A stretch of 64,000 nucleotides of DNA from an uncultured Gemmatimonadota bacterium (GTDB lineage Bacteria; Gemmatimonadota; Gemmatimonadetes; Gemmatimonadales; Gemmatimonadaceae), in assembly GCA_903882745.1 (NCBI GenBank), contig CAIRYG010000002.1:1-64000 (forward strand), given 5' to 3'. A model generated the notes under the pieces. That model ran no database searches, was not told the origin of the DNA, and saw only the letters and a list, made by a program, of their open reading frames with translations. Below are positions 16,017-26,783 of this stretch, piece after piece (within the stretch, counting starts at the first letter, position 1; the number at the start of each line of letters is the position of its first letter). The position numbers and the translations under genes were made by a program.

Positions 16017-16085
16017 CTACTTCTTCTTCGCGGCCTTCTTCTTCGGCGCGGCCTTCTTCTTTGCAGCCTTCTTCTTGGCAGCCAT
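16017..16085 (-). CDS. 22-residue Lys/Ala-rich basic peptide (histone H1-like)
   Basis: ATG to TAG. After Met the sequence is four AA(P)KKK units: 12 Lys, 8 Ala and 1 Pro in 22 residues. Its composition is that of H1/Hc1-like or AlgP-like DNA-binding tails, so a nucleic-acid-binding role is the natural guess. AAGGAG lies 8 nt upstream of the ATG, and a strong hairpin follows 17 nt after the stop, which supports a real gene rather than a chance repeat. It resembles in composition the C-terminal tail of the NYN-LOTUS protein encoded 4 kb away. It could also be a truncated remnant of a longer H1-like protein, but its own ribosome site argues against that. Confidence 0.7.
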   Translation of the reverse strand: MAAKKKAAKKKAAPKKKAAKKK

Positions 16086-19943: not shown

Positions 19944-19979
19944 AACACCGAGCAGGTCGCTAGCGACCTGCTCGGTGTT
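19944..19979. terminator. bidirectional terminator between convergent genes
   Basis: A perfect 17-bp stem AACACCGAGCAGGTCGC with its reverse complement around a TA loop. The arms end in AA/TT on both strands, so it can stop transcription from the barrel gene (+) and the NYN-LOTUS gene (-). Confidence 0.85.
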
Positions 19980-20052: not shown

Positions 20053-21975
20053 TTATCCCTTCTTGCCCTTTGGCGCAGCCTTCGCCGCCGTCTTGGCCTT
20101 CGCTGCAGGCTTCGCTGCGGGCTTCGCTGCCGACTTCGCCTTGGCGGCTGGCTTTGCAACCGACTTGGCCGCAGGCTTTGCGGGCTTTGCGGGCTTTGCA
20201 GCCTTGGTTTCCTTGGCTGGACGTGTCGTCGCGACAGGTGCGGCTTCGACAGCGGGAGCGGCCTTGGGGGCCGGAGCCGGCGAATCGTCGACGACACCAA
20301 TCAGGAGGAAGTCGGGGGGCAACACGGCCTTGGTGGGACTGCCACGACCCGGACGGCCCGGCGCGCTGCGCGGACCCATGCCACGCGGTACGACCGGGGT
20401 GTTTGCGGCCTTCTCGCGATCGGCAACCGCCTTGAGCGCAGCCTCCTTCTCGTTGAGCTGGTCGGAGACACTCGGCACGTTGGCGGCGAGCGCCACTTCA
20501 AACGCATCGCCACGCTTGCGAAGATCCACGACGTTGCCGTCATGGGCATCGCGCAGAATACGCGCGAAGTTCCGCTCGCTCAACGACTCGCTGTCGCGCG
20601 CGAGAATCGCAAACGCCTTTTCGCGCACGCGCTCGCTCGGCACTGCATCGTCGCCGGTGACGAGCGCCGTCACGGCGTCCTTCACCAAGGCAAACGCTTC
20701 GTCGCGAGTGAGACGGATGCCTGTTGTCCCGATGGTCGCATCGGCTGCATGATGCGCATGGGTGACGCGCGGAGCCGCCGCGGCCTGCGGCTGGCGGTCC
20801 GGACGCGGCTGACGCTCGTGACGCGGTTCGCGACCACGCTGCGGTGCCGCCGGAGCGGCAATCGGAGCGGCAATCGGAGCGGCCGCTGGAGCGGCTGACG
20901 TAACCGCTCCTCCCGTCACGGCCTCGGACTGCGCCGCCGTGCCGTCCTGCCCCGCGATCTCAGACGCCGTAGCCGCTGCGCGTTCGGCGGTGGTGCCCAT
21001 CGGCGCGTCGTCACGATCCCGACGATTGCGCCCACGACCACCACGACGACCGCGACGACCACCACGCCCTTCGCGTCCTTCACGTCCTTCGCCCGCCTCG
21101 GCGCCTTCGCCCGCGGGGGCTGCATCACGCGACGCAGCCGCGGGGACGACCTTGGCTCCCTTGGCGGGGGCAACCTCGAGCTGACCATTGTCGAGCTTGT
21201 TCACGATCAGCAGCCCCTTCTGGGCGGCCTCGAGGCAGAACTTGGAGAACTTGGAGAAGTTCAGGTCCTTCTCGTCAAAGGTGCTGTCGATCTCCTGCAT
21301 CACCTGCTTGAGGCGGTCGCTGCGCATGACGTCGCCGTTGCGCACCATGCGGTCGATCGACTCAATGACGAGTTCCCACGGATCGCGCTTCTGGCCGTTG
21401 CTCTCTTCGCCCGCCTTCACCAGACCGGCGAGCGCATTGTACGAGTAGTACTCGTCGCAGTTCTGCACGAGCAGGTCGCTCGACGACTCACGGATGCCGA
21501 CGCCGATCACGTACTTGCCGTATTCCTTGATCTTCATCACGAGGCTCGAGAAATCCGAGTCGCCCGAAAGGAGGATGAAGGTGCCGATCTCGGGACGCGT
21601 GAAGACGAGCTCCATGGCATCAATCGCGAGGCGGATGTCGGTGGCGTTCTTCTTGGCCGAACCGTAGGCCGGGGCCATGATCATGTCGATCGAGGACTCG
21701 GCGAGCGGTACGATGTACTGCGGATAGCGGCGCCAATCGGCGTACGCACGCTGGACGGCGACCTTTCCCTTGATGATGTCGGATCCGAGGAGGTTCCGGA
21801 GCTCCTGACCGAGGTCGGAGCGGATCCCCATCGTGACGTTGTCAAAATCGATCAGGAGGGCTGCGTTCGGGGCGTGGACGATCCCGCCGATTCCGCTGTG
21901 TGCGACCGCCTGTGGGCCGCGATGCATTGGTGCGATGGGCGCCCGCACCTGGGCGATGTGTGAATGTCGTGCCAT
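20053..21975 (-). CDS. NYN-domain ribonuclease-like protein with two OST-HTH/LOTUS domains, RGG and H1-like tail
   Basis: 640 residues from ATG 21975. Domains in order: NYN (PIN-like nuclease fold) at about 37-185 with acidic residues in LLIDFDN (39-45), ATDIRLAID (111-119) and LSGDSDF (136-142); a first OST-HTH/LOTUS domain at about 198-268; an Arg/Gly-rich stretch at 297-323; a second OST-HTH at about 422-498; and a Lys/Ala/Pro-rich tail at 586-640. NYN-LOTUS proteins in bacteria and animals (MARF1) are RNA-binding nucleases or regulators, so RNA cleavage or surveillance is inferred. RGG and basic tails would add nucleic-acid affinity. The frame is open to 22143, but residues upstream look non-coding. 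GGAG lies 13 nt before the ATG. Confidence 0.82.
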   Translation of the reverse strand: MARHSHIAQVRAPIAPMHRGPQAVAHSGIGGIVHAPNAALLIDFDNVTMGIRSDLGQELRNLLGSDIIKGKVAVQRAYADWRRYPQYIVPLAESSIDMIMAPAYGSAKKNATDIRLAIDAMELVFTRPEIGTFILLSGDSDFSSLVMKIKEYGKYVIGVGIRESSSDLLVQNCDEYYSYNALAGLVKAGEESNGQKRDPWELVIESIDRMVRNGDVMRSDRLKQVMQEIDSTFDEKDLNFSKFSKFCLEAAQKGLLIVNKLDNGQLEVAPAKGAKVVPAAASRDAAPAGEGAEAGEGREGREGRGGRRGRRGGRGRNRRDRDDAPMGTTAERAAATASEIAGQDGTAAQSEAVTGGAVTSAAPAAAPIAAPIAAPAAPQRGREPRHERQPRPDRQPQAAAAPRVTHAHHAADATIGTTGIRLTRDEAFALVKDAVTALVTGDDAVPSERVREKAFAILARDSESLSERNFARILRDAHDGNVVDLRKRGDAFEVALAANVPSVSDQLNEKEAALKAVADREKAANTPVVPRGMGPRSAPGRPGRGSPTKAVLPPDFLLIGVVDDSPAPAPKAAPAVEAAPVATTRPAKETKAAKPAKPAKPAAKSVAKPAAKAKSAAKPAAKPAAKAKTAAKAAPKGKKG

Positions 21976-22384: not shown

Positions 22385-23632
22385 GTGTTGAAACGACTCG
22401 GCTTCCGTTCCCGACTCTTTGCCATTTTGGCGCTTTTCGCCTTTGTACCGGCGATTGTGCTGACTTTGGCGTGGGGGGCAACGGTTGTGGGATTCCTCGG
22501 CCAGATGGACGGAACGGCAGCCTGGGAGCATGCCGCCTCGACTGGGGCGGCGACGATCGCTATCGCCCGCCGTGGGGCACGATCGGCGGCGGACTCGGCG
22601 GCGATCGCGGCGCACGAAGGGGAGCTCGCGCGCTCGCTGACCAATGCCGAACGCTTTGGATTCCTGTCGCGCCAGGGGATCCCGGCGCTGTTGGTCTTGG
22701 GCACGCTGTTGCTCGCGCTGCTGACCTTTCTCGCCTCGCGCGCCGCGGGGCACTTGAGTCGCCAGCTGAGTCGGCCGCTCACGGAGTTGGTCCGATGGAC
22801 CGCGCTGGTGCGACGGGGGGAGCCACTCCCGGCGAGCCGAGGGCGCGGCGCTCCGGAGTTTGAGGTGCTCAGGTCGGAGATGCGGCAGATGGAGCTCGGA
22901 CTTGCCGCCGGTCGACGAGCGGCCGTTGAGGCAGAGCGGCTGGAAGCCTTTCGAGAATCGGCACGTCAGGTCGCACACGAACTGAAGAATCCGCTGACGC
23001 CCATTCGTTTTGCTGTTGCGCAGCTGAAACGGAACGTCGGGCCGGAGCTGTCGGAGGTGGTGGAGGTGTTGGATTCAGAGTCGGCGCGACTGGACGCGAT
23101 GGCTACGAGTTTCGCGCAGTTCGGTCGACTCCCCGAGGGTCCGGTGTCGGAAGTGGACATGGGGGAACTCGTCCGTGCGGTGACGCGTACAACGGTGCCA
23201 CCTCATGTGCAGTGCGCAGTGGATGTGGCGGACGCACTCCCACACGTGACGGGGCAGTACGACGCCTTGAGTCGGGCGTTGACGAATATTCTCCTGAACG
23301 CGGTGCAGGCGACCCACGATGATCCGCGTCTCGCGGTGAGCGTGTGCTTGCGGCAGGCGACGGCTGGAACAGCCGTGGTGGTTGCCGTGCGCGATCACGG
23401 TGTGGGGATTGCGCCAGAGCGGCTGGATCGGATTTGGGACCCGTACGTCACAGACAAAACCGGTGGAACAGGGCTCGGGCTGGCGATCGTGAAGCAAACG
23501 ATGGTTGCGCACCACGGGACCGTGGAAACGGAGAGCACCATGGGGAAAGGGACCGAAATTCGTCTCGTGTTGCCAGCAGCGGGTGATTCGACGCATGGGC
23601 GAAGGCTGCTCGCTGAGCCGCAGGAGCGCTGA
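22385..23632 (+). CDS. NtrY-like sensor histidine kinase
   Basis: 415 residues, inner membrane. TM1 is at about 9-33, then a periplasmic loop of about 65 residues, TM2 at about 98-117 and a HAMP-like linker. The phosphoacceptor box is RQVAHELKNPLTPI with His at about residue 198; the following PLTPIRFAVAQL is the NtrY-type variant. ATPase boxes are NILLNAVQAT (N), DHGVGIAPERLDRIWDPY (G1/F) and GTGLGLAIVKQ (G2). GTG start 22385 has no strong ribosome site. The next gene, 3 nt later, is its likely response regulator. The stimulus is unknown; envelope genes downstream suggest an envelope signal. Confidence 0.9.
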   Translation: MLKRLGFRSRLFAILALFAFVPAIVLTLAWGATVVGFLGQMDGTAAWEHAASTGAATIAIARRGARSAADSAAIAAHEGELARSLTNAERFGFLSRQGIPALLVLGTLLLALLTFLASRAAGHLSRQLSRPLTELVRWTALVRRGEPLPASRGRGAPEFEVLRSEMRQMELGLAAGRRAAVEAERLEAFRESARQVAHELKNPLTPIRFAVAQLKRNVGPELSEVVEVLDSESARLDAMATSFAQFGRLPEGPVSEVDMGELVRAVTRTTVPPHVQCAVDVADALPHVTGQYDALSRALTNILLNAVQATHDDPRLAVSVCLRQATAGTAVVVAVRDHGVGIAPERLDRIWDPYVTDKTGGTGLGLAIVKQTMVAHHGTVETESTMGKGTEIRLVLPAAGDSTHGRRLLAEPQER

Positions 23633-23635
23633 CCC

Positions 23636-25018
23636 GTGGCCTCTGTCCTGATCATTGACGACGAGCCGAACATCCGCCGCATGGTGGGGGCGCTCCTCGG
23701 TTCTGAAGGGTTCGAGGTTCGTGAAGCACCCGACGGCGCGACGGGGGTGACGCGTGCGACCGAGTCGGAGCCCGACCTGGTGCTGCTCGACTTGATGATT
23801 CCCGGCCTGCTCGATGGAATGGCGGTGCTGGAACGCCTGCGTGCCGCGTATCCGGATCTGCCGGTGGTGATGATGAGCGGCCGAGCCGGACTTGCCGACG
23901 CGGTGAAGGCCACGCGGTTGGGGGCAGTGAATTTTCTCGAGAAGCCGCTGAGCCCTGAGGGCGTGCTGCTCGCGATCAACAGTGCGCTCGAACTGCGCTT
24001 GGCCCGCCGCGAGCGTACCGCGTTGCGCGCCGACCTCGGCTTAGCCGGGGAGTTGGTTGGTGAGAGCCCCGCGATGCATGCCTTACGTGCCATGATTGCG
24101 CGCGTGGCTCCTAGCGACGCACGTGTGCTGATCACCGGCGAGAGCGGCACGGGCAAAGAATTGGTGGCATCAGCGATCCATGCCGGAAGCCCGCGCCGAG
24201 AGCGCCCGTTTGTTCGCGTGAACTGTGCGGCGATTCCGCGTGACTTGGTGGAGAGTGAGATGTTTGGGCACGAGCGTGGCGCCTTCACCGGGGCGACGGA
24301 CCGCCGACTCGGCCGCTTTGAGCTGGCCCACACCGGGACACTCTTGCTCGACGAAGTCGGGGACCTTGGGGCAGAAGCACAGGCCAAACTGCTGCGCGCG
24401 ATTGAGGCCAAGGAGATTGAACGTGTCGGCGGTGGAACGCCGATTCGGGTGGACGTGCGCATTGTGGCGGCGACGAATCGCGATCTCGAACGTTCGGTCC
24501 GCGATGGACAGTTCCGCGAGGATCTCTATTTCCGCTTGAATGTGATTCCCGTCTCGGTACCGCCACTCCGTGAGCGCCCGTCGGATATCCCAGCGCTCGT
24601 GCGTCACTTTGCCGCCCTGCAGCGCCAGCGCTCTGGCCAAGCCGCACCGGTATGGACCGACGAGGCCATTCAGTACTTCATGCGCCATCGTTGGCCCGGC
24701 AATGTGCGCGAACTGGCGAACATCGTGGAGCGGTTATCGATCCTGCACGCGGGGGCGCCAATTGGCCTACCAGAGGTGCGGGCGGTGCTTCCGCTCAGCG
24801 AGAATGGACAGGTCGGGCTCAGCCCTGCGCTCCCTGATTTCGTTCAGCCGGAGCTCACCCTGAGCGACGCGCTGGACGAGCACGAGAAGTTGCTCATCAG
24901 TCGCGCACTTTCGGCGGCCAACGGCGTGGTGGCCGAAGCCGCGCGCCGACTCAACACCGATCGACCGAACCTGTATCGACGTATGAAGCGGCTTGGACTC
25001 ACCTCGCTTGGAGAGTGA
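23636..25018 (+). CDS. sigma-54-dependent response regulator, NtrC/NtrX family
   Basis: 460 residues: receiver domain (1-120, phospho-Asp in VLLDLMIPG near 53), AAA+ domain (about 140-375) and a Fis-type HTH (EAARRLNTDRPNLYRRMKRLGL). The AAA+ part has Walker A GESGTGKE, an intact sigma-54 contact loop GAFTGA (215-220) and Walker B LLLDEVGDL. It should therefore activate promoters read by RpoN; rpoN itself is not in the window. It is encoded directly after the kinase and overlaps nothing, with GTG start after ACCC. The downstream barrel and DUF4390 genes are probably in the same operon. Confidence 0.93.
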   Translation: MASVLIIDDEPNIRRMVGALLGSEGFEVREAPDGATGVTRATESEPDLVLLDLMIPGLLDGMAVLERLRAAYPDLPVVMMSGRAGLADAVKATRLGAVNFLEKPLSPEGVLLAINSALELRLARRERTALRADLGLAGELVGESPAMHALRAMIARVAPSDARVLITGESGTGKELVASAIHAGSPRRERPFVRVNCAAIPRDLVESEMFGHERGAFTGATDRRLGRFELAHTGTLLLDEVGDLGAEAQAKLLRAIEAKEIERVGGGTPIRVDVRIVAATNRDLERSVRDGQFREDLYFRLNVIPVSVPPLRERPSDIPALVRHFAALQRQRSGQAAPVWTDEAIQYFMRHRWPGNVRELANIVERLSILHAGAPIGLPEVRAVLPLSENGQVGLSPALPDFVQPELTLSDALDEHEKLLISRALSAANGVVAEAARRLNTDRPNLYRRMKRLGLTSLGE

Positions 25019-25022
25019 CCAG

Positions 25023-26783
25023 ATGCTGGCAATCGTTGCGAACGCGACTCGTGTGGTCGCTTTGGCGTTGCTCGTTCTTGCACACCCGGTAGCGCACGCA
25101 CTCGCTGCGCAGAATCGTGCCGATGAGAACGGAGCACGGCTGACAAGCGTGGCACGTACCGCAACCGAGCTCTACAATGCCGCGCCCACGACGCGTGCCA
25201 ACGGCGCCTTCGAACTTGCGCGCGGCACGAGCTCGACCGGCGATGTGGCGGTGCTCAATGGTCCGGTGACCATTGCCGGCACTGTGAACGGCACGCTCGT
25301 GGCGATCAACGCGGATGTGCGGTTTGCCCCCGGTGCACGAATCGCTCAGCACCTGATTGTGATTGGCGGAACGATCACCGGACAGGACAGCGCGACGATC
25401 GGCGGGGAGATCCGCGTGCAGGCGGAGCTCCTGCGGTACCATCTCGAGGGAGAGAAACTCGTCGCCGAACGTGATGCGGCGTACGACGACGGCTGGTGGT
25501 CGCGTCGGAGCATCCGCCACGAGTTTCGGCGCGGCGAGGCGTACACGGATTTCTTTTACGTCGCCTCCCGCGCCTACAATCGTGTGGAGGGATGGTCGTT
25601 TGTCGCCGGGCCCCGGTTTCGGCGCATCACCGACTGGGGAAAGATCAACGTCGAGACCTTTGGCGTCGTACGCACCGCGAGCCCCGTCCGATGGGACAAC
25701 CGCACCCTCGGGCACGACGCGCGTATCGATGTGCAGCTTGGTAAACCGTGGGGCCTGGTGCTTGGGGCACACGTGTTTGACGTGGTGCAGTCCACGGAGT
25801 CGTGGCAGCTGAGCGATGGCGAAGTCGGACTGTCGTCCGCTTTGCTGCACCGAGACTATCGTGACTACTACGCCAGACATGGCGGAGAAGGGGTCGTGCG
25901 ACTCCAAGCCACGGACGAGGCTGACCTCACGATGACCGTGAGTGCCGAAACGTGGGACAATGTCGCCGCACGGAATCCCTGGTCGCTACTGCGCGGCAAT
26001 GAAGCGTGGAGAGAAAATCCGCTGGAGGCCGTTGGGGCGATGCACCTGCTCTCGGTGCGTGCCCGTGTCGACACGCGCGAGAAGCAACGATCGGCATGGT
26101 CCGGCTGGTACGCCACCTTTGACTGGGAGAATGGCACGGGCACGCTCACGTCGCCAGCGGCACCGTGTGCAAAGGAGACGCTCGCGCTCTGCATCGCAGG
26201 CCTCACCAAACCGGTGAACTACACCCGCGGCATGGTAGACCTGCGCCGCTACAACCGTATTTCGCCGCATGCGTTCCTGAACCTGCGAATTGCGGCTGGC
26301 GGATGGTTGAGCGGTGACGCGCTCCCGCTGCAGAAACGGATGGCGCTCGGTGGTCCAGGCACGTTGCCTGGCTTTGGGTTTCGCGAAACCTCTCTCGCCC
26401 CGGACATCCTGAACTGTTCGACGGGCAACGCGATATCTGGCACCCCGGGGTTCTGCGACCGAATGGCGTTGGCGCAGGTGGAGCTCCGCTCGCGGTTGTT
26501 CTCGGGGATCTTCCGCGACGACGCCGGGGACGAGTGGTGGCGCCCCGGGCTCAACCATGAAGCGCAGTGGGTGCTCTTTGCAGACGCCGGACGCGGCTGG
26601 AATGTGGGCGCCAGCAATGGGGGTGTGAATATCGACAAGGATCGCCTCCCCGATATGAACTCCTTCAAACGGGACATCGGCATCGGTCTCGACTTCGGCG
26701 GCCTGGGCTTCTATTGGGCCAAGGCGGTCAGCGATGCGGCCGAACCCGGACGCTTCTTTATGCGATTGGAGCGTCGGTTCTAG
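25023..26783 (+). CDS. Omp85/BamA-superfamily outer-membrane protein with N-terminal beta-helix-like segment
   Basis: 586 residues. A signal peptide (VALALLVLAHPVAHALAAQ) is followed by a repetitive segment at about 70-130 (VLNGPVTIAGTVNGTLVAIN, GGTITGQDSATIGGEIRV) that resembles a bactofilin or short beta-helix rather than POTRA domains. The rest is a barrel with LQKRMALGGPGTLPGFGFRE, the Omp85/ShlB-type loop-6-like motif, and a final strand ending RFFMRLERRF with C-terminal Phe. I start at ATG 25023, which follows GGAGAG by 8 nt. It sits after a two-component pair and before a DUF4390 gene. Function is unknown; insertion or secretion by analogy only. Confidence 0.72.
   Translation: MLAIVANATRVVALALLVLAHPVAHALAAQNRADENGARLTSVARTATELYNAAPTTRANGAFELARGTSSTGDVAVLNGPVTIAGTVNGTLVAINADVRFAPGARIAQHLIVIGGTITGQDSATIGGEIRVQAELLRYHLEGEKLVAERDAAYDDGWWSRRSIRHEFRRGEAYTDFFYVASRAYNRVEGWSFVAGPRFRRITDWGKINVETFGVVRTASPVRWDNRTLGHDARIDVQLGKPWGLVLGAHVFDVVQSTESWQLSDGEVGLSSALLHRDYRDYYARHGGEGVVRLQATDEADLTMTVSAETWDNVAARNPWSLLRGNEAWRENPLEAVGAMHLLSVRARVDTREKQRSAWSGWYATFDWENGTGTLTSPAAPCAKETLALCIAGLTKPVNYTRGMVDLRRYNRISPHAFLNLRIAAGGWLSGDALPLQKRMALGGPGTLPGFGFRETSLAPDILNCSTGNAISGTPGFCDRMALAQVELRSRLFSGIFRDDAGDEWWRPGLNHEAQWVLFADAGRGWNVGASNGGVNIDKDRLPDMNSFKRDIGIGLDFGGLGFYWAKAVSDAAEPGRFFMRLERRF

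What the first reader, a model, noticed from the sequence alone, without database searches (positions are those of the whole stretch)
20053..21975. NYN-LOTUS protein with RGG box and histone H1-like tail
One protein combines a NYN nuclease fold, two OST-HTH/LOTUS domains, an Arg/Gly-rich region and a Lys/Ala/Pro tail. NYN plus LOTUS is known in bacteria and in animal MARF1, but the two basic low-complexity additions would suit an RNA- or nucleoid-associated condensate-type protein. It is conspicuous beside an envelope-stress-like two-component operon.
Basis: partly seen in the sequence, partly recalled or inferred. Interest (0 to 1): 0.6.

Follow-up and report, generated by a model that had tools for sequence, protein, structure and literature searches.

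The report
Core NYN-LOTUS nuclease with basic tails
A whole class of soil and water bacteria carries one highly conserved RNA-cutting enzyme (predicted) that joins a nuclease to two RNA-binding LOTUS domains and to conserved arginine-glycine and lysine-alanine-rich floppy segments; the core architecture is known in bacteria, while the conserved basic segments, and a DNA-repair gene that usually sits next door, are the new clues to its job.

Summary
The 640-aa gene at 21975-20053 (-) encodes a NYN domain (Pfam E 7e-26), two OST-HTH/LOTUS domains, an R/G-rich box and a K/A/P tail. The OST-HTH calls fall below Pfam's cut-off in this protein, but orthologues pass it, and a profile of the orthologues' second LOTUS domain hits residues 193-273 (7e-15) and 424-498 (3e-5). 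The tails are not strain-specific: the RG box is in all 64 complete close orthologues, and a basic tail in nearly all. Both are rare in this genome (3 and 2 of about 304 sampled ORFs). NYN plus one or two OST-HTH is the stereotyped bacterial architecture described in 2010, and some Burkholderiales proteins carry similar basic tails, so this is a variant of a known kind. Best reading: an RNase recruited to G-rich or structured RNA. Condensates and a DNA-damage role are unproven.

The parts
20053..21975 (-). whole gene: NYN - OST-HTH - RG box - OST-HTH - basic tail, 640 aa
   Evidence: orthologues start at the same place
21907..21924 (-). N-terminal HRGPQA motif (residues 18-23), conserved in the window's family
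   Evidence: R19, G20, P21, A23 at least 90% conserved
21442..21864 (-). NYN nuclease domain (residues 38-178); acidic residues D43, D45, D113, D119, D139, D141 and N46 invariant in 54 sequences
21157..21399 (-). OST-HTH/LOTUS 1 (residues 193-273)
21013..21087 (-). RG box GREGREGRGGRRGRRGGRGRNRRDR (residues 297-321)
   Evidence: R308, R311, G312, G315 invariant
20482..20706 (-). OST-HTH/LOTUS 2, diverged (residues 424-498)
   Evidence: missing from orthologues L070, L076, L079
20341..20385 (-). second RG segment RGMGPRSAPGRPGRG (residues 531-545)
20290..20319 (-). short linear motif PPDFLLIGVV (residues 553-562); related PP-hydrophobic-G motif in sister families
   Evidence: G560 invariant
20056..20232 (-). 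K/A/P-rich C-terminal tail (about residues 582-640)
19944..19979 (.). perfect inverted repeat between the convergent genes, probably a bidirectional terminator
   Evidence: (z -6.1 for the region)

Best explanation
A core (chromosomal, single-copy) ribonuclease of the class Gemmatimonadetes. The NYN domain cuts single-stranded RNA with its aspartate cluster (inferred from MARF1 and the PIN/NYN superfamily). The two LOTUS domains choose the substrate, probably G-rich or G-quadruplex RNA (inferred from published work on other LOTUS domains, bacterial ones included). The arginine-glycine box between them and the lysine-rich tail add multivalent, non-specific binding to RNA, and perhaps to the nucleoid, which raises local substrate concentration; this might extend to granule formation. 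Shown here: the domains, the invariant acidic residues, the conservation of both basic segments, and near-universality in the class. Inferred: activity, substrate, granules.
For: NYN at 7e-26 with invariant acidic residues; two LOTUS domains bridged by profile and AF2 winged helices; RG core RRGRRG.RGR kept in all 64 complete close orthologues while the linker around it varies freely; near-universal and single-copy; MARF1 NYN degrades single-stranded RNA and needs its aspartates (PMC6294520); LOTUS domains including bacterial ones bind G4 RNA (Ding 2020 as cited in PMC12247748; the original was not held). The genome's RNase E/G is a 545-aa short form with little beyond the catalytic body, so it lacks the C-terminal scaffold on which Caulobacter builds its RNA granules (PMC9312465).
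Against: No activity or binding datum exists for this family. The most constant neighbour is a DNA glycosylase, not an RNA gene. Three close orthologues lack LOTUS 2. In sister families the basic tail is exchanged for an HhH domain, more often a DNA-binding module.
Confidence: 0.55

Rival explanations
1. It acts at the chromosome in nucleic-acid damage repair: the nuclease and the glycosylase made from one transcript deal with alkylated DNA or RNA, and the basic tail or HhH domain holds the protein on DNA.
For: Methylpurine-DNA glycosylase (PF02245, E 1e-59 to 1e-67) lies directly downstream on the same strand in 123 loci over families f1-f7 and f9; a 4-base stop/start overlap is possible in 40 of them. 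All 31 proteins of families f4-f9 end in a helix-hairpin-helix-like module (Pfam HHH_5 sub-threshold, best E 1e-4).
Against: 17 loci with enough flank lack the glycosylase, and the window's own genome has no PF02245 match at all although the nuclease is intact, so the partner is dispensable. Operon neighbours further out (aroB, AMP-dependent ligase) suggest mere housekeeping linkage. LOTUS domains are known as RNA binders.
Confidence: 0.2
2. The low-complexity segments have no selected function: they are G+C-driven filler on an ordinary NYN-LOTUS nuclease.
For: The linker and tail vary greatly in length and sequence; compact homologues in Vibrio, Ensifer and Aquabacterium work without them; a second K/A-rich protein exists in the sample.
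Against: RG box in 64 of 64 close orthologues with invariant columns R308, R311, G312, G315; comparable boxes in only 3 and tails in 2 of 304 sampled ORFs of the same genome; similar tails recur in Burkholderiales.
Confidence: 0.15
3. An anti-phage or stress-triggered suicide nuclease.
For: PIN/NYN folds are common in toxins and defence.
Against: Near-universal, single-copy, vertically kept with conserved gene order; no PADLOC model matches; no antitoxin-like partner.
Confidence: 0.05

Closest known systems
Bacterial LK-nuclease (DUF88/NYN) + OST-HTH family (Anantharaman, Zhang and Aravind 2010, PMC2848206)
   Same: N-terminal NYN/DUF88 nuclease followed by one or two OST-HTH domains; predicted stand-alone RNA-degrading enzyme
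   Different: Here the two OST-HTH domains are split by an R/G box and followed by a conserved PP-x-L-x-x-G motif and a basic tail or HhH; the second OST-HTH is strongly diverged in the window's family
MARF1 (animals)
   Same: NYN endoribonuclease plus LOTUS domains on one chain
   Different: MARF1 has eight LOTUS domains and two RRMs and recruits decapping factors; the window protein has two LOTUS domains and no RRM
Burkholderiales NYN-OST-HTH proteins (Caballeronia WP_244798044.1, Eleftheria WP_301260509.1)
   Same: NYN, OST-HTH and an R/G- and K/A/P-rich disordered C terminus; 32-34% identity over NYN and LOTUS 1
   Different: A single recognisable OST-HTH; no glycosylase gene next to it in the two loci read
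Caulobacter RNase E (BR bodies)
   Same: An RNase with a charged disordered region that could assemble RNA granules (works-like comparison only)
   Different: Unrelated catalytic domain; no granule evidence here

Membership tests
NYN domain ribonucleases | PF01936 match above curated cut-off | tested here: met
   91.9 bits against cut-off 24.2, residues 38-178; 54 of 54 orthologues match
NYN domain ribonucleases | conserved acidic cluster of the active site | tested here: met
   D43, D45, D113, D119, D139, D141 invariant in 54 sequences; the SGDSDF stretch aligns with SGDGDF of 2qip
NYN domain ribonucleases | ribonuclease activity | not testable with these tools
   needs a biochemical assay
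OST-HTH/LOTUS, first domain | PF12872 profile match | tested here: met
   below cut-off in the window protein (12.6 of 23.8 bits), but the same aligned domain passes in sister families with two stretches and is hit at 7.4e-15 by their second-domain profile
OST-HTH/LOTUS, second domain | PF12872 profile match | tested here: inconclusive
   no direct Pfam match in 28 sequences; match through sister-family profile at 2.6e-5 and winged-helix model
OST-HTH/LOTUS | winged helix with the LOTUS topology | tested here: inconclusive
   winged helix predicted with high confidence; LOTUS of TDRD7 (3rco) among top rows but tied with generic winged helices
Bacterial NYN + OST-HTH family of PMC2848206 | N-terminal NYN followed by single or duplicated OST-HTH | tested here: met
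   domain order
RGG-box RNA-binding proteins | clustered RG/RGG repeats in a disordered region | tested here: met
   RRGRRGGRGR core, pLDDT below 50; binding untested
Histone H1 / HC2-like proteins | profile match to a histone-like family | tested here: not met
   no PF07382 or other histone match in this protein; resemblance is compositional only
Condensate-forming RNases (BR bodies) | forms RNA-dependent granules | not testable with these tools
   needs microscopy and in vitro droplets
Anti-phage defence proteins in PADLOC | match to a defence model | tested here: not met
   no match at E 0.01

The most novel reading that the evidence does not exclude
The NYN-LOTUS protein is the organising nuclease of a Gemmatimonadetes RNP body (a bacterial analogue of LOTUS-based germ granules): LOTUS and RGG capture G-rich RNA, the basic tail or HhH ties the body to the nucleoid, and the co-transcribed methylpurine glycosylase links it to clearance of alkylated nucleic acid.
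Probability: 0.08. Interest if true: 0.85.

Novelty: new variant of a known kind. Interest (0 to 1): 0.42.

Why it matters
Bacterial NYN-LOTUS proteins have been predicted RNases without an assigned job since 2010. This family is near-universal and single-copy across a whole class, with a strictly conserved catalytic and LOTUS core, so a knockout or CLIP experiment in one cultured Gemmatimonadetes strain could give that job. Natural variants (LOTUS 2 lost, tail exchanged for HhH, glycosylase neighbour lost) offer ready-made tests of what each part does.

Tried and rejected
Pfam and NCBIfam on the window protein alone do not give OST-HTH above cut-off; resolved with orthologues. The profile-profile comparison of LOTUS 1 and LOTUS 2 from the window's family alone was inconclusive (4% probability); resolved with sister families. 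The PF12872 genome search found nothing in the genome or in 14 controls, so it is uninformative. AF2 on the whole protein modelled NYN badly (alignment too uniform), so the NYN fold rests on Pfam. Foldseek/VIA rows are mostly generic winged helices (ORC, linker-histone globular domain, Fur); the linker-histone row was not taken as kinship, since Z under about 10 is common for winged helices. I first took 'two matches per genome' in families f4-f9 as a paralogue; the sister proteins read carry two canonical LOTUS domains, so the second match is more likely LOTUS 2 hit by LOTUS 1 of the query; the second places were not inspected one by one. Gain or loss of HhH: families f4-f9 form one clade (support 0.955) and the outgroup proteins lack HhH, so a single gain is the simpler reading, but the root rests on a distant outgroup and f1-f3 do not come out as a clade. 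Metagenome and viral scans were not used.

Full report
Observation. The ORF at 21975-20053 (-) is 640 aa. Pfam gives NYN at residues 38-178 with E 7.3e-26 and only a sub-threshold OST-HTH match. A named-genome scan gave 80 Gemmatimonadota loci; 64 hold complete ORFs. In an alignment of 54, the NYN and first LOTUS domains are nearly invariant, including D43, D45, N46, D113, D119, D139 and D141.

Are there two LOTUS domains? OST-HTH matches 50 of 54 orthologues at E <= 1 and 26 of 28 isolated first domains, best 3.8e-5. The second domain gives no Pfam hit in the window's family. Proteins from sister families (f4-f9), read from other genomes, pass the OST-HTH cut-off (up to 45.7 bits, two stretches in most). 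A profile built from their second LOTUS domain hits the window protein at 193-273 (i-E 7.4e-15) and 424-498 (2.6e-5), and a second domain at i-E < 0.01 in 60 of 64 close orthologues (E-values are for a set of 113 proteins). AF2 models both as winged helices. So two LOTUS domains are present, the second diverged; three close orthologues (L070, L076, L079) have lost it.

Are the basic segments real? The RG box (at least 14 R+G in 25 residues) is in 64 of 64 close orthologues, around an RRGRRG.RGR core, with invariant columns in a linker that otherwise drifts. The C-terminal 60 residues are on average 69% K/R/A/P in these orthologues, from strong to moderate. In 353 kb sampled from the same genome, 3 of 304 ORFs have a comparable RG box and 2 of 304 a comparable KAP tail, this gene counted in both. 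Between box and tail lies a further RG segment and a PP-x-L-x-x-G-V-V motif; sister families have PPPLLEGQ at the same place.

Distribution. All 18 genomes of the genus and 186 of 200 of the phylum sample have the gene; the 14 without are 8 of 194 within the class and 6 of 6 outside it. The window's genome holds one NYN gene. Outside the phylum the nearest relatives found on plasmids are Burkholderiales proteins at 32-34% identity; Caballeronia and Eleftheria proteins also bear basic or RGG-like C-terminal regions, whereas Aquabacterium, Vibrio and Ensifer homologues are compact, 247-268 aa.

C-terminal census. All 31 proteins of families f4-f9 carry a helix-hairpin-helix-like module (profile E < 1e-3); none of 87 from f1-f3 does (Pfam HHH_5 is sub-threshold, best 1e-4). 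The HhH-bearing families form a clade (support 0.955).

Neighbourhood. In the order Gemmatimonadales the divergent two-component pair and Kbl-Tdh are usual neighbours (HK in 79 of 100 loci searched); they were not found beside the f4-f9 genes. Directly downstream, a methylpurine-DNA glycosylase gene (PF02245) lies on the same strand in 123 loci of families f1-f7 and f9, with a possible 4-base overlap in 40; 17 loci with more than 700 bases of flank lack it. Some loci come from the same or related species, so these are not 123 independent events. The window's own genome has no PF02245 match, while three control genomes ring. The neighbour is thus conserved but dispensable.

Mechanism. Animal MARF1 shows that a NYN domain linked to LOTUS domains degrades RNA and needs its aspartates (PMC6294520). 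LOTUS domains, bacterial ones included, bind G4 RNA (Ding 2020 as cited in PMC12247748). RG boxes commonly bind RNA, G4 among it (general knowledge). The simplest reading is an RNase aimed at G-rich or structured RNA with extra multivalent contacts. The genome also has RNase Y and a 545-aa RNase E/G without a long C-terminal scaffold, which leaves room for another scaffold, but nothing tests this. The glycosylase pair and HhH keep a chromosome or damage role open.

Known or new. NYN with one or two OST-HTH is the stereotyped bacterial form (PMC2848206). The new points are the conserved basic segments and linear motif, the class-wide near-universality, the glycosylase pair and the tail-to-HhH exchange. 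No paper on this family was found in the searches made; only open-licence papers are held, so this is not proof of absence.

Noticed in passing
window 16017-16085 (-): Tiny ORF MAAKKKAAKKKAAPKKKAAKKK (22 aa), a stand-alone lysine-alanine-rich peptide; coding status unknown.
   Followed up: partly
L184:13904-15280 (+), own genome: A PSP1-domain protein (PF04468, E 4e-23; the family of RicT/YaaT, an RNase Y partner in Bacillus by general knowledge) ends in an arginine/glycine-rich tail, RRRRRRRGRRGGRRGG.
   Followed up: partly
L186:9891-10643 (-), own genome: 250-aa protein with acidic N half and long K/A/P-repeat C half, no Pfam match.
   Followed up: partly
C termini of some f2 and f5 orthologues (e.g. 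L126, L130, L116, L121): Short C-terminal stretches such as ESFWSKVKRGLTGG or SGLFGLFRQGRRSR look like amphipathic helices that might bind membrane.
   Followed up: no
window 22385-26783 (+): Histidine kinase, NtrC-type sigma-54 response regulator and an Omp85-like ORF in a row, conserved in order Gemmatimonadales.
   Followed up: partly
window 19944-19979: Perfect inverted repeat between convergent genes, probable bidirectional terminator.
   Followed up: partly
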